Assembly (NCBI RefSeq): GCF_900215155.1
Contig: NZ_LT907980.1
Span: 1,860,001 to 1,924,000, forward strand
DNA from: Marinobacter sp. LV10R510-11A
GTDB lineage: Bacteria > Pseudomonadota > Gammaproteobacteria > Pseudomonadales > Oleiphilaceae
Direction: 5' to 3'
Length of the DNA stretch: 64,000 nucleotides
In this document: positions 8,394-38,921 of the stretch, one piece after another
Position numbering within the stretch: position 1 is the stretch's first letter
Layout of the letters: every line of letters starts with the position of its first letter
The notes under the pieces: model-generated
Seen by the model: the letters and a program-made list of their open reading frames with translations, nothing else
What the model was told of the DNA's origin: nothing
The model's database searches: none
Program-made: the position numbers and the translations under genes

Positions 8394-8499
8394 CGGAACT
8401 GGCAAGGATGTCGTGCTAACCATGCGCGAGTGGGGCTATCAATATCATCGTTGCGCAACCAGGCATAACGGCCTCGTTGACGCGCTAGGAATTAAATAA
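8251..8499 (+). CDS. Rz1-like outer-membrane spanin lipoprotein, nested in Rz
   Basis: An 82-residue lipoprotein whose GTG start lies inside the Rz-like gene in another frame and which extends about 106 bases past it. The N-terminus has a signal peptide ending in LLSGC (lipobox, Cys at about residue 22). The mature part is Pro-rich at its start (PREPLPANL), as in Rz1 proteins. The nested arrangement is the classic Rz/Rz1 layout and supports both calls. It ends in TAATG, shared with the DGR gene start. Confidence 0.75.
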   Translation: MRSKSPFIQTCAFLPMILLSGCLTILPREPLPANLTTKCPQALPSLTDGTGKDVVLTMREWGYQYHRCATRHNGLVDALGIK

Positions 8500-11132
8500 T
8501 GACAGCACTACTGGCAAACAACGCCACCTCAAAGTTAGCTACACCGTTAACGACTTCGGGCACGGTAGTTGCGCTTGAGAGCGGAGATGGCGTGATGTTC
8601 CCCGCCCCGTCGGGCGGTGACTGGCTTCCTCTCACACTGGAGGGAGATGGCACCTTGGAGGTGGTTAGGGTTACGGGGAGGTCTGGAGACTCCCTTACAG
8701 TAGAGCGGGCGCAGGAGGGCACTTCGGCGCAGGAGTTTTTGGCGGGCGATACAGCAGATCTCCGATTTACTGAAGCAGTGCATGCATCTTACATGCAGTC
8801 AGAGGAGCACCTTGCCGCAACTGACCCGCATACCCAATACCTCAAAGAGTCTGAGCTCCCTCACGCCCCTGCACTAATCGACGGCCTGCGCCGTTCAGTC
8901 GAAGCGGCAAGCGGCGGCCACATGACCGTATTTTACACGGCAAAGAATCAGCCTTCTTACTTTTTCAGACAACCAAAGTACCTTTGCGAAGACGTTGCGC
9001 CAGGCGGCGAACTCGGCACCGGCGTACACGAGGCCTTCAAATTCAGCGGAGTGGAAGATGCTGAAATATGGTTGGGCGCTTACGAAGGCGCAGCCCTAAA
9101 CGGCGAAGGGGTAAGCCAGCCAGGCATCCCCGCCGGTTACTCCATCAACTACGACAGCGCCCGCGCCGCGTGCCAAGCGTGCGGCCCCGGCTTTGACCTA
9201 CAAACCCATTGGGATTGGGCAGCCATAATGCATTGGTGCATGGCCAACGGCTTTGAGCCTCGCGGAAACACAAACTACGGCCGGCATCACGATGAGCGAT
9301 TTGAAACCGGCACACGACAAGATAACGGCGCGCCCGGCAATAGCAGCGGCATCGGCAATATATTGCTCGGATCAGGCCCTGCAAGCTGGCGTCATGATGG
9401 CACCATGTCGGGTATTTCGGATCTTGTTGGCAATGTGTGGGAGTGGATGTCTGGCTTTAAAGCGGTGGACGGCAGAATATTCCTGTCTTCTGACAACGAA
9501 ATTCCGGCAGAGTCTGCATACGTAGACAGCGGATTTGATATCTCTAGCAGCAACCCCTGGGCGTCGATGGATACAACGGGAGCAAGCGAACTTTTAAAGA
9601 GAGCAGGAATAGTTCCCAAGGGTATTAATGACCCGATAGGCCGACTCTACACTAACCTGTCAGGGGAACGGCTCCCGTTCCGTGGCGGCGCTCGCAGCAA
9701 TTCCGGCAATGCCGGGCTGGGCGCGTTGAACCTCAACAACGCCCGCACGAATTCGAACTCGAATATCGGGTTTCGCCCCCGCTCTCAGTTCTTGTTGGGC
9801 CAGAAGTTAAAGGGCCAAGGCTTTTCATCCAGCGCTCAACTGAAAGGACGCCAGATCCACGGCAGGAGCCGAAAAATATTTAGAGCGCTGCGCGTAGTAC
9901 CCGCAACGGGGAGGCCTGTAGCGCTCGCCCACTATTTAGAGCACGGCATGGCAAAAACCTTCACCGGTCTATTCGAAGAAATCACAACCTTTGAATCTCT
10001 ACACGCAGCCTACCTCAGGGCCCGAAAGGGTAAGCGCAAAAGCTGGCCATGCCGGCACTTTGAGCGCGACCTGGAGTGCAATCTAATCCAGTTACAAAAT
10101 GAGCTGATCTGGGATGAGTATCAGTGCGGCGGTTACATCATCTTTCATGTGACAGAGCCAAGGCGCCGCAAGATTACGGCGCTCATACTGTTCCGCGATC
10201 GCGTCGTCCAGAACGCCATCTTTGCTGCCATAGAGCCAATATGGGAAGCGCGATTCATTTCGGGCAGCTATGCCTGCCGCATAGGGAAAGGCACACACGC
10301 GGGCGCCAACAAGGCGCAAGAAATGCTGCGTCAATGCCTGAGAGAGCACGGCGAAGTGTTTGTTCTCAAGGCAGATATCAGCAAGTATTTCGCCAGCATT
10401 GACCACGAAATACTGCTTAATCTGCTGCGCCGCCGAATAGCCGATAAGCGCATAATGGCCGTGATTGAGGAAATCATCCGTAGCTACAGTGAGCCAGAAA
10501 CACCCGGCAAGGGCATTCCGATCGGAAACCTAACCAGCCAGATGTTCGCCAACATCTACCTGGACGCGTTAGACCAGTGGATGAAGTGCCGCCGCCAGGA
10601 GCGCTGGTACGTGCGGTATATGGATGACTGGATCGTAGTGCATCCTGACAAGCGCCACCTGCAGGCACTGCGCATCGACGCCGAAGCATGGCTGGCCGAC
10701 AACTTGGAGCTACAAACCAATCATAAAACTTTTGTTTTTCCTGTTCGGCACCACGGTGGGCGCGGCCTGGATTTCCTTGGCTACCACCTTTGGCCGAATG
10801 CCCGCAGGCTACGAAAGGCCAGCTTGCGGCGACTGTCTCGCCAGTTAAAAGAATGGCAGAGCGAGTACGCCAGAGGCCAGATTGACCTAGCCCATGTGCG
10901 CGAAAATTTACACAGCTGGACGAACCACGCCCGGCACGGCAACGCAGTACCAGCGGTTGCCGCCATGCTCAGAAAAGCAACATTCAGGAGACAGCACGGT
11001 GGATCCAATGCAACCGGAAGACGCAGTAGTCGAAACTCACGAAGAGTGGTCGCTAAGAAAGCGCAGGGAAAAGATGAAGGTCACGAGGTTTCAGGCGAAA
11101 GCAGCGTTGCTGCAGGCGGGCTTGCTGGATGA
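8499..11132 (+). CDS. DGR target protein (C-type-lectin/FGE fold) fused in frame to a DGR reverse transcriptase
   Basis: One uninterrupted 877-codon frame. Residues 1 to about 150 look like a phage fibre N-terminus (many Thr/Gly strands, then ATDPHTQYL near residue 108). Residues about 165-428 match the sulfatase-modifying-factor/FGE type of C-type-lectin fold used by DGR target proteins, with the hallmark GNVWEW near 311-316 and RGGAR at 395-399. Asn-rich residues 401-422 are the diversification region. A 55-residue linker leads to a reverse transcriptase from about Met484: motif A KADISKYF (Asp626), motif B IGNLTSQ (675-681), catalytic YMDD (707-710), then FLGY. The IGxxxSQ form of motif B is the DGR mark, unlike the SP form of group II introns. 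Separate target and RT genes are the norm, so fusion is the surprise. The last 45 residues read through the next gene out of frame. An independent RT start at ATG 9948 is possible but has a weak ribosome-binding site. Confidence 0.85.
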   Translation: MTALLANNATSKLATPLTTSGTVVALESGDGVMFPAPSGGDWLPLTLEGDGTLEVVRVTGRSGDSLTVERAQEGTSAQEFLAGDTADLRFTEAVHASYMQSEEHLAATDPHTQYLKESELPHAPALIDGLRRSVEAASGGHMTVFYTAKNQPSYFFRQPKYLCEDVAPGGELGTGVHEAFKFSGVEDAEIWLGAYEGAALNGEGVSQPGIPAGYSINYDSARAACQACGPGFDLQTHWDWAAIMHWCMANGFEPRGNTNYGRHHDERFETGTRQDNGAPGNSSGIGNILLGSGPASWRHDGTMSGISDLVGNVWEWMSGFKAVDGRIFLSSDNEIPAESAYVDSGFDISSSNPWASMDTTGASELLKRAGIVPKGINDPIGRLYTNLSGERLPFRGGARSNSGNAGLGALNLNNARTNSNSNIGFRPRSQFLLGQKLKGQGFSSSAQLKGRQIHGRSRKIFRALRVVPATGRPVALAHYLEHGMAKTFTGLFEEITTFESLHAAYLRARKGKRKSWPCRHFERDLECNLIQLQNELIWDEYQCGGYIIFHVTEPRRRKITALILFRDRVVQNAIFAAIEPIWEARFISGSYACRIGKGTHAGANKAQEMLRQCLREHGEVFVLKADISKYFASIDHEILLNLLRRRIADKRIMAVIEEIIRSYSEPETPGKGIPIGNLTSQMFANIYLDALDQWMKCRRQERWYVRYMDDWIVVHPDKRHLQALRIDAEAWLADNLELQTNHKTFVFPVRHHGGRGLDFLGYHLWPNARRLRKASLRRLSRQLKEWQSEYARGQIDLAHVRENLHSWTNHARHGNAVPAVAAMLRKATFRRQHGGSNATGRRSSRNSRRVVAKKAQGKDEGHEVSGESSVAAGGLAG
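9681..9780 (+). repeat. DGR variable/template-type repeat (single copy)
   Basis: This stretch encodes residues 395-427. Eight Asn codons are all AAT or AAC (9699, 9708, 9729, 9735, 9738, 9750, 9756, 9762), giving the pattern LNLNNARTNSNSNIGFR. DGRs mutate template adenines, so a template carries intact AAY codons while variable copies show scattered other residues there. This copy has the template-like state. No second copy was found by eye on either side of the RT. A weak hairpin follows it (TTGGGCC at 9795-9801 with GGCCAA at 9813-9818). Confidence 0.7.
9948..11132 (+). CDS. reverse transcriptase domain of the fused gene (possible internal start)
   Basis: If translated from the ATG at 9948 this gives a 394-residue protein beginning MAKTFTGLFEEITTFESL, which is a typical start for free-standing DGR-type RTs. 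All RT motifs lie within it: FRDRVVQNAI (fingers), KADISKYFASIDH, GIPIGNLTSQMFANIYL, VRYMDDWIVV and LDFLGYHLWP. There is no maturase domain X or endonuclease. It sits 168 bases after the repeat, the usual distance between a DGR template and its RT. It overlaps the next gene by 134 bases. Listed separately because the fusion may be processed or started internally. Confidence 0.6.
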   Translation: MAKTFTGLFEEITTFESLHAAYLRARKGKRKSWPCRHFERDLECNLIQLQNELIWDEYQCGGYIIFHVTEPRRRKITALILFRDRVVQNAIFAAIEPIWEARFISGSYACRIGKGTHAGANKAQEMLRQCLREHGEVFVLKADISKYFASIDHEILLNLLRRRIADKRIMAVIEEIIRSYSEPETPGKGIPIGNLTSQMFANIYLDALDQWMKCRRQERWYVRYMDDWIVVHPDKRHLQALRIDAEAWLADNLELQTNHKTFVFPVRHHGGRGLDFLGYHLWPNARRLRKASLRRLSRQLKEWQSEYARGQIDLAHVRENLHSWTNHARHGNAVPAVAAMLRKATFRRQHGGSNATGRRSSRNSRRVVAKKAQGKDEGHEVSGESSVAAGGLAG

Positions 11133-13274: not shown

Positions 13275-13330
13275 CCCTTACGGCCCCTGAAATACCCGCT
13301 GTTGACACTGTTGAAACCTGAGGTGACAAA
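13140..13330 (+). other. candidate packaging (cos) region
   Basis: In lambda-like phages that use a Nu1/gpA terminase, cos lies just before the small-subunit gene. Here the 190 bases before the terminase small subunit hold unusually GC-rich blocks (13176-13222 and 13241-13254), and the only frame across most of it is a doubtful 50-codon one. No nicking site can be defined by eye. The call rests on position and composition. Confidence 0.3.
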
Positions 13331-13332
13331 CC

Positions 13333-13821
13333 TTGGCTGAAATAAATCGGCTTGAAGATGCGTACAGCTGGAACCTGACGCGCCTGGCCGATGCCTTCGG
13401 CCTTCACCGGGATACGATCAGAAAGCGCTTGAACGCCGCCGGCGTCGTGCCATCTGGCACCCGAAATAACGCCAACGTCTACCGGTTAAAAGATGTGGGC
13501 CCGGCCCTGTTCGCGGACAGCTTTGCCGGTTCTGATGGTGATCCTGATGAGCTTTCGCCTCAGGATCGAAAGGCCTGGTACCAGTCCGAGAACGAGCGGA
13601 TCAAGTTGGAGGTAGAGCTTCGCCAGCTGCTGAGTGCTGACGAGGTTCATCTTGAAATGAGCCGGCTTGCGAAGGCGGTAACCACGACCCTCGATAGCTT
13701 ACCCGACATTCTTGAGCGGGATTGCAGCCTGACGCCAGAGGCGATTGAGCGAGTACAGGAAACAATGGATGCGCTGCGCGAACAGATGTACCTGCGAATC
13801 ATCCAGGAAGACGAAGAATGA
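13333..13821 (+). CDS. terminase small subunit (Nu1/DUF1441-like)
   Basis: A 162-residue protein with a TTG start supported by GAGGTG at 13320-13325. The N-terminal winged helix-turn-helix (RLADAFGLHRDTIRKRL, residues about 13-29) binds cos DNA in this family. The C-terminal helices (WYQSENERIKLEVELRQLL) assemble with the large subunit. It is directly followed, with a four-base overlap, by the GpA gene, which fixes the assignment. Confidence 0.8.
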   Translation: MAEINRLEDAYSWNLTRLADAFGLHRDTIRKRLNAAGVVPSGTRNNANVYRLKDVGPALFADSFAGSDGDPDELSPQDRKAWYQSENERIKLEVELRQLLSADEVHLEMSRLAKAVTTTLDSLPDILERDCSLTPEAIERVQETMDALREQMYLRIIQEDEE

Positions 13822-15866
13822 GTTCGCTTGCCAGTGCCTCCCAGATCAAGCGAGAGGTTGCTGAGCTTATAAAGCCCCCGCGCAGAATCCGGATCAGTGA
13901 TGCCGTATCGGATCACATGATGGTGGTTGACGGCGGCGGTAAGATTTCCCCGTTCAAGGACGACCTGACTCCTTACATGACCGAGGCAATGAACTGCCTT
14001 TCCAGCAGGCTATACGATGCGGTTGTTTTCATTGGCCCTGCCCGGTCCGGGAAAACGATTTCATTGCTGGATGGCTGGGTTGCCTACGTAATCAGTTGTG
14101 ACCCGGGCGATATGTTGATTGTTCAGGTCAGCGAAGAGAAGGCACGCGAGTACAGCAAAAAGCGGATAGACCGGATGCTCCGGAATTCGCCGAAGCTGGC
14201 TCCGCTCATGAGCCCGCACGGCCATGACAACAACGTTCACGACAAGACCTTTCGCGCCGGAAACTATCTCGGCATCAAGTGGCCCACGGTCAACGTGCTT
14301 TCTTCCTCTGATTACAGGTTCGTGGCGCTCACCGACTACGACCGGCTTGATGAAGACTTGAGCGGCGAAGGTGACCCATTCAGTCTCGCCTCGAAGCGGA
14401 CACAGACATTTATGTCCTCCGGCATGACGCTGGTTGAGACATCTCCGGGCTGGGAGGTTACGGATCCGGACTGGAAGCGTGATCCAGCGTTCCCGCACCA
14501 GGCGCCCCCAACCAAGGGAGCCCTCGCGCTGTACAACCTGGGCGATCGCCGCCGGCTGTATTGGCAGTGCCCAAGCTGCGCGGAATGGTTCCAGCCAATA
14601 CTTGAGAATTTCAACCTCGAAGCGGCGCACCCGTTCTGCCCCTCTTGCGGAACGATCATCGAGGGCGCGGACGCAAAAAGGAATCTGAACCGGGGCGGTA
14701 GATGGATTCAAGAAGGCTGCCACCTGAACGCCGAAGACGAATACAGCGGCCAGCCGCGAGCAAGCCGCATTGCATCGTTTTGGATGGAAGGCCCGGCCGC
14801 AAAGTTCCAGACCTGGGAGAACCTGGCATACAAACTACGCCAGGCCGAAGAGGTTTATGAGCAGACCGGCTCACAGGAAAAGCTGAAGGCCACCGTCAAC
14901 ACCGATTGGGGCCGCCCTTACCGGTACCGAAAACTTGAGAACGTGCGCAGCCTGGAGGTTATCCAGTCCCGCGCAGAAAAGCTCGGTGACCGCGAGGTGC
15001 CTGAGGGTGTGCGCTGCCTGTTCGCAGCCGTGGACGTCCAAGGAGGCAAGAAGCGCCGCTTTGTCATTCAGGTTGTTGGGTACGGCGAGCATGGCGAACG
15101 CTGGCTGATCGACCGCTACGCCCTGCGCAAATCTGACCGTGTTGATGAAGACGGCGAGAAGATGCGGATTGACCCGGGCGGGTACCCAGAAGACTGGGAT
15201 CTGCTGATCAACTTCGTCATCTCTCGGCGGTATCCGCTGGCGGATGGTAGTGGCCGGGAAATGCCGGTTCTGCTGTCGGGTATCGACACTGGCGGCGAGG
15301 ACGGGGTTACCGAAAACTCGTACCAGTTTTACCGGCGCTTGAAACGCCAGGGCCTGCACAGAAAGACCAAGCTGATCAAGGGCGGAAGTCGGCTGGGGGC
15401 TCCGAGGATTCGTGAATCATTCCCGGATAGCACCGGCCGTAAAGATCGGCACGCCAGCAGCCGTGGAGATATCCCCCTTTACATTCTGAACACTAATTTG
15501 ATCAAGGACACAATCGCCAACTGCTTGGAGCGAGAAACGCCCGGGCCGGGCTACATACATTTCCCGGACTGGCTTGGGGAGTGGTTCTTTGAAGAGCTCA
15601 CTTACGAGCAGCGAAACGTCCACGGAAAATGGGATAAGCCCGGCAAGGGCAACAACGAAGCCTTCGATCTCATGGGTTACTGCGATGCGGTGGCCACACT
15701 TCACGGTTACGACAAAATCAACTGGGAGTCTCCACCGCCCTGGGCCCGGCCATGGGATAGCAATTCAGAGATTCAATCTGACGGACGAGCGTCTGATTCG
15801 AAGAAGTCCACCGCACTGCCCGCGTCACGACAGCGCCGGCGGTCACGATTCAGGTTCCAAGGCTGA
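13818..15866 (+). CDS. terminase large subunit, GpA family
   Basis: A 682-residue packaging motor and nuclease. Walker A is GPARSGKT at residues 73-80. An acidic stretch (ALTDYDRLDED) near 170 fits the Walker B region. A zinc-binding pair, CPSCAEW near 252 and CPSCGTI near 274, is typical of GpA. The C-terminal nuclease part contains FAAVDVQ and GIDTGGEDG acidic motifs. It drives ATP-dependent DNA translocation into the prohead and cuts cos. The stop overlaps the gpW start. Confidence 0.9.
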   Translation: MSSLASASQIKREVAELIKPPRRIRISDAVSDHMMVVDGGGKISPFKDDLTPYMTEAMNCLSSRLYDAVVFIGPARSGKTISLLDGWVAYVISCDPGDMLIVQVSEEKAREYSKKRIDRMLRNSPKLAPLMSPHGHDNNVHDKTFRAGNYLGIKWPTVNVLSSSDYRFVALTDYDRLDEDLSGEGDPFSLASKRTQTFMSSGMTLVETSPGWEVTDPDWKRDPAFPHQAPPTKGALALYNLGDRRRLYWQCPSCAEWFQPILENFNLEAAHPFCPSCGTIIEGADAKRNLNRGGRWIQEGCHLNAEDEYSGQPRASRIASFWMEGPAAKFQTWENLAYKLRQAEEVYEQTGSQEKLKATVNTDWGRPYRYRKLENVRSLEVIQSRAEKLGDREVPEGVRCLFAAVDVQGGKKRRFVIQVVGYGEHGERWLIDRYALRKSDRVDEDGEKMRIDPGGYPEDWDLLINFVISRRYPLADGSGREMPVLLSGIDTGGEDGVTENSYQFYRRLKRQGLHRKTKLIKGGSRLGAPRIRESFPDSTGRKDRHASSRGDIPLYILNTNLIKDTIANCLERETPGPGYIHFPDWLGEWFFEELTYEQRNVHGKWDKPGKGNNEAFDLMGYCDAVATLHGYDKINWESPPPWARPWDSNSEIQSDGRASDSKKSTALPASRQRRRSRFRFQG

Positions 15867-36626: not shown

Positions 36627-37469
36627 ATGTCCGTTACAGACTACCTGACACCGTATGATTTTTCGCCAGCGACGATATTGGGCTGCGTGCTTGTGTTGGG
36701 GTTCTATGGCTACGGGCTGTTGAAAATGCCTGAAGACAATCGGCCAGGCAGCGGTCGGATACTGGTGTTCGTGGTGGGCGTGATGATTTGCTACGGCGTT
36801 ATGCAAACCCGGTTTGATTACTACTCTCAATACATGTTCTTCGTTCACCGGGGCCAGCACCTGATTCTTCACCACCTGGGGCCGTTCTTGATCGCACTCT
36901 CCAATCCCCTGCCGGTGATGCGCTTTCTCTTCAGCCGGATCAAGCCAGGGATCAGGCAGGCACTGTGCCCTCTGGGCTGGATATACCGGTTCCTGCAGCA
37001 CCCTGCTATTGCATCTTTCCTGTTCGTAGGGCTGATTTACTTCTGGCTATGGCCGCCCATCCATTTTAATGCCATGCTCAGCCGCAATCTGTACTGGGTC
37101 ATGAACTGGAGCATGCTGCTGGATGGCCTGCTGTTCTGGTGGCTTATCTTGGACCCGCGCTCGCCGGTATCCGGTGATGCCCTAGGGTATGGCAAGCGGA
37201 TCCTGCTGCTGGCCATGGTGGCGATTCCGCAGATAATCCTGGGCGCCACCATCGTTTTCTCCCGAAGCATGGTTTATGACGTCTACGAAGTGTGCGGCCG
37301 TGCCTGGCCGATGGCACCGGAGACGGACCAGATCCTGGGCGGGCTGCTCACCTGGATCCCTCCTGCCATGATGAGCATTCTCGGCATACTGATCATCCTT
37401 CGCCGCGCCATGCGAGAAGACGGTAAGGTATCCCCCTATTCCGAAAAGCTGAAGGCAACCCATTCATGA
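36627..37469 (+). CDS. ctaG: CtaG-like (caa3-type) cytochrome oxidase assembly membrane protein
   Basis: A 280-residue protein with about seven membrane helices. The pattern (YYSQYMFFVHRGQHLILHHL, PLPVMRFLF, WPPIHFNAMLSRNLYWVMNW, MLLDGLLFWW) matches caa3_CtaG (PF09678). This family helps copper insertion into cytochrome c oxidase. Conserved His residues sit in the HLILHHLGP segment. The next gene, overlapping by four bases, encodes SCO1, another CuA-site factor, which supports the role. Confidence 0.8.
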   Translation: MSVTDYLTPYDFSPATILGCVLVLGFYGYGLLKMPEDNRPGSGRILVFVVGVMICYGVMQTRFDYYSQYMFFVHRGQHLILHHLGPFLIALSNPLPVMRFLFSRIKPGIRQALCPLGWIYRFLQHPAIASFLFVGLIYFWLWPPIHFNAMLSRNLYWVMNWSMLLDGLLFWWLILDPRSPVSGDALGYGKRILLLAMVAIPQIILGATIVFSRSMVYDVYEVCGRAWPMAPETDQILGGLLTWIPPAMMSILGILIILRRAMREDGKVSPYSEKLKATHS

Positions 37470-38089
37470 GTATTCAGTTCCGTTCACGCCTGCCAAGAAT
37501 GCTGTCGATCACTGTCGTAGTCATTGCAGCGGTAATCCTGGCCGGCTGTTTCGGCGACGACAAGTCCTGGCGCGGCAAGGACATCAGCGGCCTGATGCCG
37601 GAACTGGCCTTCGAGCTGACAGACACATCCGGCGATACCGTGACTGCTAAGAAAACCGACGGTGAGATCCGGATGCTGTTCTTCGGCTTCACCTCCTGCC
37701 CCGACGTCTGCCCCGCTACCCTCCAGAAATTGTCCCGCGCCGTGAAGGACATGCCTGACCAATGGCAGGACGACACCCGGATTGTCTTCGTCAGCGTTGA
37801 CCCTCAAAGGGACACGCCGGAACGGCTCAAAAGCTATGTGGATTTCTTCAGCGAGAGAGCCATCGGCCTCACCGGTGAAGAAAAAGCGCTGCGGGAGCTG
37901 AGTAAACGCTACCGCACCACCTTTGGCTACGACGATCCGGATGCGGAGGGCAACTACAACGTGTCGCACAGTGGCGCCGTCTATGTATTCGACCGCAACG
38001 GAAATGCTCGCCTTCTGTTCAAACCTGACCTGAGTGTCGAAGACATCCGGACAGACCTGATTGCATTGGCTCAGGAAAACAGAATTTGA
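37466..38089 (+). CDS. SCO1/SenC copper chaperone lipoprotein
   Basis: A 207-residue protein. The signal ends in a lipobox LAGC (Cys28). The thioredoxin fold carries the copper site: Cys78 and Cys82 in TSCPDVCPATL and His168 in VSHSGAVYV. SCO1 loads copper into the CuA centre of cytochrome oxidase or keeps its cysteines reduced. It is coupled to the CtaG-like gene. Confidence 0.85.
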   Translation: MSIQFRSRLPRMLSITVVVIAAVILAGCFGDDKSWRGKDISGLMPELAFELTDTSGDTVTAKKTDGEIRMLFFGFTSCPDVCPATLQKLSRAVKDMPDQWQDDTRIVFVSVDPQRDTPERLKSYVDFFSERAIGLTGEEKALRELSKRYRTTFGYDDPDAEGNYNVSHSGAVYVFDRNGNARLLFKPDLSVEDIRTDLIALAQENRI

Positions 38090-38165
38090 CATTGAGATCC
38101 TGCAATCCGAGTCACCCTTCGTCTGATAGTTGGCGCTTCAGGATCGGCAACTGCAGGTCGGCTCC

Positions 38166-38921
38166 TTAGCTCAGAAGACGCTCTTTGGCTTCATTAACAC
38201 GCGCAGCCAGGTAGTTACTCCCGCCACGGTCTGGGTGTATTTTCTGCATCACTCGACGGTGGGCTTTGATAATCTCATCCCGGTTGGCACCAGCCTCCAG
38301 CCCCAGAACATCCAGGGCTTCGCTCTCGGTCAAAGCGCCGCCACTGCCCGAATTTTCAGGCTCCCCTTCCCGCGCGCTGTCATTGCCGGCCAGGTCGTCA
38401 GTGCGCCAGGAATCCCCGAAGCGGCGGTCCAGATAGGTTTCCAGAAGCCGGGCGGAATCCTCGTCGTGGTCCCGGCAATACTGCAATAACTCGATGAATT
38501 CACTCTCGCCCAGATCCGCCAGCGCGCGCCCGGCCATGGGGCCTTTCAATATCTCACCGCTCATGGTTCCGGAGTCGTGATCCAGAGTCATGTCGAGGAT
38601 ATCGCTGGAAACATGGGATTGGTTGCCGGGCTTGGCCTCTGCTTCGCCCTGTCCAGAGCCCCGCATCCGACCCGTCAGCAAAGATGGCAACACGCGGCGT
38701 AGCAAGGGAAACAGGAAAACCAGCAAGCCTAACAAGATTTGCAAACGGCCGGTAACGGCCAGAAGAACCGCCATCAGGACACCGGCAATCAACACCAATT
38801 TTAGGATAGCCGGTTTTCGTTGGCTGGGCGGTTGGCTGCGTAGCCATACCCACGCAAAAACTGTCATTACGATAACCAGAAGCGTCAGTGGCACTCGGAT
38901 ACTCCAGGCCAATTGGCCCAC
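38166..38921 (-). CDS. membrane-anchored protein with C-terminal J domain
   Basis: A 251-residue protein with two or three N-terminal membrane helices (VPLTLLVIVMTVFAWVWL, KLVLIAGVLMAVLLAV, ILLGLLVFLFPLL), an acidic middle (ESEFIELLQYCRDHDEDS) and a C-terminal J domain. The HPD motif lies in HRRVMQKIHPDRGGS near residue 230. It would recruit DnaK to the inner membrane. It follows the VWA gene on the same strand and is probably co-transcribed. Confidence 0.75.
   Translation of the reverse strand: MGQLAWSIRVPLTLLVIVMTVFAWVWLRSQPPSQRKPAILKLVLIAGVLMAVLLAVTGRLQILLGLLVFLFPLLRRVLPSLLTGRMRGSGQGEAEAKPGNQSHVSSDILDMTLDHDSGTMSGEILKGPMAGRALADLGESEFIELLQYCRDHDEDSARLLETYLDRRFGDSWRTDDLAGNDSAREGEPENSGSGGALTESEALDVLGLEAGANRDEIIKAHRRVMQKIHPDRGGSNYLAARVNEAKERLLS

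What the first reader, a model, noticed from the sequence alone, without database searches (positions are those of the whole stretch)
8499..11132. DGR target protein and reverse transcriptase joined in one reading frame
Seen: an unbroken 877-codon frame runs from a fibre-like N-terminus through an FGE/C-type-lectin domain (GNVWEW, RGGAR) and an Asn-rich repeat into a reverse transcriptase with IGNLTSQ and YMDD motifs. Established: in described DGRs the target and RT are separate genes, with the template between them or near the RT. Inference: either a real fusion, which would tie the mutator enzyme to the virion fibre, or a gene rearranged by recombination. The 168 bases between repeat and RT Met484 look like a normal template-to-RT spacer, not a normal target C-terminus.
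Basis: partly seen in the sequence, partly recalled or inferred. Interest (0 to 1): 0.9.

Follow-up and report, generated by a model that had tools for sequence, protein, structure and literature searches.

The report
Phage fibre–mutator fusion by repeat recombination
In this prophage a diversity-generating cassette has lost its middle by recombination between its two repeats, which joined the tail-fibre gene to the mutator enzyme gene in one reading frame and very probably switched the mutator off.

Summary
The 877-codon frame is real: fibre N-terminus, TaqVP-like lectin domain, repeat, spacer and a full-length DGR reverse transcriptase, with no stop. It is not a designed fusion. The nearest intact relatives (eight viral contigs and a same-genus genome) read target–VR–stop–hairpin–avd–TR–spacer–RT. 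In the window everything between VR and TR is missing. Its one repeat has VR-type flank and adenine changes on its left, no changed template adenine in its right part, and the TR's right flank. This is the footprint of a VR×TR crossover that deleted about 590 bases including avd. The fusion is in frame because in many of these DGRs (19 of 42 loci; 10 of 29 sequence clusters plus one mixed) TR, spacer and RT are already one open frame in the VR's phase; in Vhmlvirus VP58.5 the annotated RT gene starts upstream of the TR. No second repeat copy and no avd was found in the genome, while the same-genus control shows both. None of 240 relative proteins inspected carries target and RT together. Best reading: self-inactivation of a DGR that fixes the fibre's binding site and appends an RT passenger. 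Whether the fused protein is made, tolerated in virions, or active is untested.

The parts
8499..11132 (+). Fused target–RT open reading frame, 877 codons plus stop
8499..8822 (+). Tail-fibre-like N-terminus (residues 1-108)
   Evidence: phrog_8469 1e-32; 8jov_1 to residues 5-93
8877..9669 (+). DGR target body, TaqVP-like FGE/C-type-lectin domain up to the repeat (from residue 127)
   Evidence: 5vf4 3.7e-66, best stretch residues 127-356, Foldseek 1.6e-17; phrog_2889
9670..9783 (+). Single chimeric VR/TR repeat core, 114 nt
   Evidence: alignment with 9 TR/VR pairs plus the VRs of L007 and L054
9670..9702 (+). VR-derived left part: A-site changes at 9690, 9691, 9697 against L006 TR (plus one non-A difference at 9702); preceded by a VR-type flank
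9715..9783 (+). TR-derived right part: 0 of 14 template adenines changed (one non-A difference, 9716, shared with the VR of L007); the crossover lies most likely between about 9698 and here
9784..9947 (+). TR-side spacer (lies between TR and RT in intact relatives), here an in-frame linker
   Evidence: pLDDT below 50 at residues 433-484
9948..11129 (+). Full-length DGR reverse transcriptase (394 aa) with its own ATG and a weak AGAG upstream; YMDD at 10617-10628

Best explanation
This is a prophage DGR cassette (target–VR–hairpin–avd–TR–spacer–RT) that suffered one homologous crossover between its direct repeats VR and TR. The crossover deleted the VR's right end, the target stop codon, the hairpin, avd and the TR's left end (586-592 bases between matching points in L004, L006, L030 and L044), leaving one chimeric repeat. 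Shown by sequence: the chimeric flanks, the missing parts, and the single repeat place found in the genome. Because TR, spacer and RT are often already one open frame in the VR's phase in this group, the crossover put the target directly in frame with the RT. Inferred: the main product is a fibre–RT protein of roughly 96 kDa (rule-of-thumb mass), with possible internal initiation of RT at 9948. Inferred: mutagenic retrohoming is off, since Avd, the recipient's right end with its hairpin, and a separate recipient are gone; the fibre's binding site is frozen as a VR/TR hybrid, and the RT is an unneeded passenger.
For: Intact order in relatives: the two BLAST blocks overlap on the window's one repeat and the relatives hold avd between. 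Left 20 bases: 11-17 of 20 match the VRs and 4-7 of 20 the TRs of 9 loci; right 25 bases: 20-25 match the TRs and 6-7 the VRs. 0 of 14 template adenines changed in the right part against 67 of 121 in eight relatives' VRs; chance about 1e-5 if sites were independent (L002 left out because its own TR looks mutated). Own genome: 1 repeat place and no Avd match; same-genus G086 as control: 2 repeat places and Avd at 108.9 bits. The best hairpin after the VR has a GRNA loop in 38 of 42 intact loci (one of them, L050, with a 4-bp stem only) and the window's best does not (no shuffled control; loop rule from passages of PMC3240598). In-frame outcome follows by phase arithmetic for L004, L006, L030, L044. 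RT, Avd and TR are each needed in the reconstituted BPP-1 DGR (passages of PMC12875486).
Against: The exact parent cassette is not in hand: the closest TR (L006) differs from the window at two non-adenine bases (9702, 9716), so the crossover is placed in a zone. Five of the nine nearest pairs (L001, L002, L005, L040, L041) would give a frameshift on the same crossover, so the in-frame result is not universal. RT has no inactivating mutation, and the excess of amino-acid changes in its lineage is weak (4 silent, 8 replacement; p 0.024 against the L001 group, 0.056 against L001 group plus L003). PMC12875486 reports TR–VR recombination as rare in its assay. Loss of activity is inferred and not measured.
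Confidence: 0.92

Rival explanations
1. Functional fusion: the RT is carried on the tail fibre (or the fibre on the RT) and the joined protein has a selected role, for example delivery of RT with the virion or self-templated mutation of the single repeat.
For: The frame is open, the RT and lectin core are recognisable and largely confident in the model, with a low-confidence linker at 433-484, and RT frames that begin before the TR exist naturally.
Against: 0 of 240 inspected relatives carry both parts (only the best 120 of 547 and of 186 hits were listed); 0 junction-spanning proteins; no other genome match covers both parts in one frame. Avd, hairpin and second repeat are gone. The RT lineage shows, if anything, relaxed constraint.
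Confidence: 0.04
2. Assembly collapse: the repeats were merged by the assembler and the real locus is intact.
For: Repeats of about 114 bp can be collapsed by short-read assembly, and a collapse could also leave mixed halves; the reads and the sequencing method are not available here.
Against: The genome is one 4.44-Mb contig given as 100% complete, and no avd was found anywhere in it.
Confidence: 0.04

Closest known systems
BPP-1-type DGR (target–VR–avd–TR–RT)
   Same: Same gene order in the relatives, DGR RT (8ub7 is the best solved match; it is the BPP-1 RT by recall), lectin-fold target, adenine-centred VR changes
   Different: avd, the VR right end with its hairpin, and the second repeat are deleted; target and RT are one frame
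[quoted passage not shown] PMC3521204, passages)
   Same: The repeat and spacer are in frame with RT, as in the annotated RT of VP58.5 (13317-14594; its TR match is at 13371-13447) and phiARM81mr (37318-38604; TR match 37336-37446)
   Different: There the target is a separate gene; here the target's body supplies the start
Inactivated DGRs of DiGReF Figure 4 and partial losses in Treponema (passages of PMC3521204, and PMC4891356)
   Same: Loss of DGR parts with the target retained
   Different: Those are stop codons, frameshifts, insertions or absence of RT/TR; a VR×TR deletion joining target and RT was not in the passages seen
L007 (IMG/VR contig), a second loss in the same clade
   Same: Target 84-86% identical, avd and TR missing
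   Different: There the deletion starts after the target stop and removes most of RT, so the target keeps its normal end

Membership tests
Diversity-generating retroelement (active) | DGR-clade reverse transcriptase | tested here: met
   8ub7 6e-53, Foldseek 9.9e-24, phrog_1423; meaning of the IGNLTSQ and YMDD motifs recalled
Diversity-generating retroelement (active) | Target gene with C-type-lectin variable domain | tested here: met
   TaqVP 5vf4
Diversity-generating retroelement (active) | Separate TR and VR copies | tested here: not met
   One place in the own genome against two in control G086
Diversity-generating retroelement (active) | Accessory protein Avd | tested here: not met
   NF033474: no match in G000, 108.9 bits in G086; one search also empty
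Diversity-generating retroelement (active) | Hairpin with GRNA loop after VR | tested here: not met
   38 of 42 intact loci have such a loop, the window does not; rule from PMC3240598
Diversity-generating retroelement (active) | Ongoing adenine mutagenesis | not testable with these tools
   Needs population reads
DiGReF group 3 (TR overlapping RT ORF) | Template-type repeat in frame with RT | tested here: met
   Window; relatives L004, L030, L044 and the L057-L087 set; annotated cases
Selected target–RT fusion family | Recurrence in independent genomes | tested here: not met

The most novel reading that the evidence does not exclude
A one-repeat DGR: the chimeric repeat serves at once as template and recipient inside the same fibre–RT gene, so the virion carries a fibre tethered to its own mutator and the gene could write changes into itself.
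Probability: 0.03. Interest if true: 0.85.

Novelty: new variant of a known kind. Interest (0 to 1): 0.38.

Why it matters
It points to a built-in failure mode of DGRs: the two repeats they need are also a direct-repeat pair that can delete avd in one step, which would freeze the receptor-binding protein. In cassettes whose TR already lies in the RT frame and in the VR's phase (19 of 42 loci) the same event is predicted to leave a target–RT fusion, so such fusions in annotation should be read first as likely dead DGRs. It also draws attention to DGRs whose RT appears to be translated through its own template.

Tried and rejected
Second repeat or avd elsewhere: searched in the window and the own genome, none found. 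PF05635 as Avd probe was uninformative because its controls were silent; NF033474 with G086 as positive control replaced it. The genome-contig scan with the RT found no relative, so the organism is named only by inference: P0127, recorded as Marinobacter bryozoorum, is contained in the G086 target ORF, and G086 is listed as same genus. Exact-pattern scans of viral contigs for further VR-left/TR-right hybrids gave 0 stretches for the Marinobacter-type pattern against 7 with the intact VR pattern, and 0 against 8 for the L059-type (the first hybrid pattern does find the window; the second has no such positive control). A tblastn of phages found no record covering 80% of the fused protein in one place (0 of 242 records). 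E. coli genomes had no near match to the L059 cassette. The selection test on RT was suggestive only. The AlphaFold model has mean pLDDT 64 from a 24-row alignment and its fibre N-terminus is not interpretable. A promoter/terminator scan gave no more sites than shuffles.

Rows dropped before the 42-locus count: of 57 relative loci, 15 were left out (L003, L083 no target match; L007/L039 DGR deleted; L042, L043, L045, L046 same contigs as L005, L006, L001, L004; L047, L054, L071 no RT match; L051, L053 same features as L050; L052, L078 repeat not located).

Literature: nine searches listed no paper whose title or abstract start reports a target–RT fusion or a VR×TR deletion. Only passages found by term were seen in PMC12875486, PMC4891356, PMC10907252, PMC3240598, PMC6642488, PMC8144416 and PMC3521204; no paper was read whole, and subscription papers are not held.

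Full report
Observation. The frame 8499-11132 is open for 877 codons. It carries a tail-fibre N-terminus, a TaqVP-like lectin domain and a full-length DGR reverse transcriptase. The region is a prophage: endolysin and Rz-like spanin genes lie before it, and terminase, portal, head protease, major head protein and tape measure genes after it; genes sampled from 36.6 kb on look like host chromosome. The genome is a single 4.44-Mb contig.

What relatives look like. Viral contigs L001, L002, L005 and L006 (RT 89-92% identical) and L004 (75%) give two BLAST blocks against the window, target-to-repeat and repeat-to-RT, which overlap on the window's single repeat but are apart in the relatives. Between them lie the target stop, a short hairpin and avd. 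The same order is in L040, L041 and L044 and in G086, a genome of the same genus (Avd 108.9 bits). L054, whose target is 85% identical over the stretch matched, also runs into avd before its contig ends. Of 57 relative loci (52 distinct contigs) 53 have an avd match; the four without are L003 (contig ends in the spacer), L047 (contig ends in the target) and L007/L039, one contig in which avd, TR and most of RT are gone.

The junction. Aligned with nine TR/VR pairs, the window's left flank is VR-type and its right flank TR-type. Against L006 TR, adenine changes stand at 9690, 9691 and 9697, plus two non-adenine differences at 9702 and 9716, the latter shared with the VR of L007. From 9715 to 9783 none of 14 template adenines is changed, whereas eight relatives' VRs have 67 of 121 changed in that part. 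The crossover therefore lies most likely between about 9698 and 9715, and less surely anywhere up to the right flank. The distance between matching VR and TR points is 586-592 bases in seven of the nine nearest loci and 568-569 in L040 and L041, which is the expected deletion.

Why in frame. In 19 of 42 intact loci (10 of 29 clusters at 85% identity, plus one mixed cluster) the frame from TR to RT is open and has the VR's phase; frames from TR to RT are open in 23 of 42 for the RT frame against 3 and 7 for the other two. Loci are related, so these counts are not independent. L001, L002 and L005 lack one base of a C run and, like L040 and L041, would give a frameshift. In L004, L030 and L044 an ATG directly follows the avd stop in that frame. 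In 14 further loci of the L057-L087 set (L059 is 92-95% identical to Vhmlviruses VHML and VP58.5) an ATGA overlap with the avd stop does, and 12 of these 14 have no in-frame ATG between the TR and the RT core (other start codons not assessed); L056 has neither. The VP58.5, ACA1, ACA2 and phiARM81mr records annotate RT over the TR match, while the VHML and proACA1-A records annotate nothing there. Across seven of those sequences the only internal indel in the spacer is six bases, and codon positions vary in 20, 20 and 29 of 42 columns, a modest third-position excess. So an RT frame that begins before its template repeat is natural in this group, and matches DiGReF group 3.

Is it functional? 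Own genome: one repeat place, no Avd; control genome: two and one. The VR-side hairpin is gone. Work on BPP-1 requires RT, Avd and TR and, for efficient homing, the hairpin (PMC12875486 and PMC3240598, passages). No fused protein was found: of 547 RT-side and 186 target-side hits the 120 best of each were listed and compared, and 0 of 240 had both; a junction query gave three proteins covering 27% of it, all from the target list; among genomes no match other than the own one covers both parts in one frame (matches in 15 of 195, 13 of 369 and 2 of 124 genomes, own included). RT changes on the window lineage are 4 silent and 8 replacement, against 18/5 in the L001 group and 14/12 in L003, which hints at relaxed constraint but rests on 12 changes. 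The model folds RT (Foldseek to 8ub7, TM by target 0.89) and part of the lectin core, with residues 433-484 below pLDDT 50, so nothing in the fold forbids a joined product.

Verdict. A VR×TR deletion is well supported (0.92). The consequence, an inactive DGR with a frozen fibre and an RT passenger, is inferred. The finding is a new variant of a known kind of event (DGR inactivation) and not a new kind of system.

Noticed in passing
L057-L061, L063, L065-L067, L072, L074, L080, L081, L087; L120 1959-3236 (VP58.5 RT): In these 14 DGR loci the RT frame starts at an ATGA overlap with the avd stop, before the TR, and 12 of 14 have no in-frame ATG between TR and the RT core; the template repeat seems to encode the N-terminus of the RT.
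   Followed up: partly
L002 5726-5840: The TR of L002 has TR flanks on both sides but only 9 template adenines where its sister L005 has 22, as if the template itself had been mutated or converted (or misassembled).
   Followed up: no
L007 4735-6402: A different DGR loss: target and VR intact, avd, TR and most of RT deleted, no GRNA hairpin after the VR.
   Followed up: partly
P0012 (protein): A 633-aa protein with Avd, TR peptide and RT in one frame: another kind of DGR gene joining.
   Followed up: no
P0004, P0005 (proteins): DGR-like RTs listed with amidase domains in the same protein, perhaps RT–endolysin joins.
   Followed up: no
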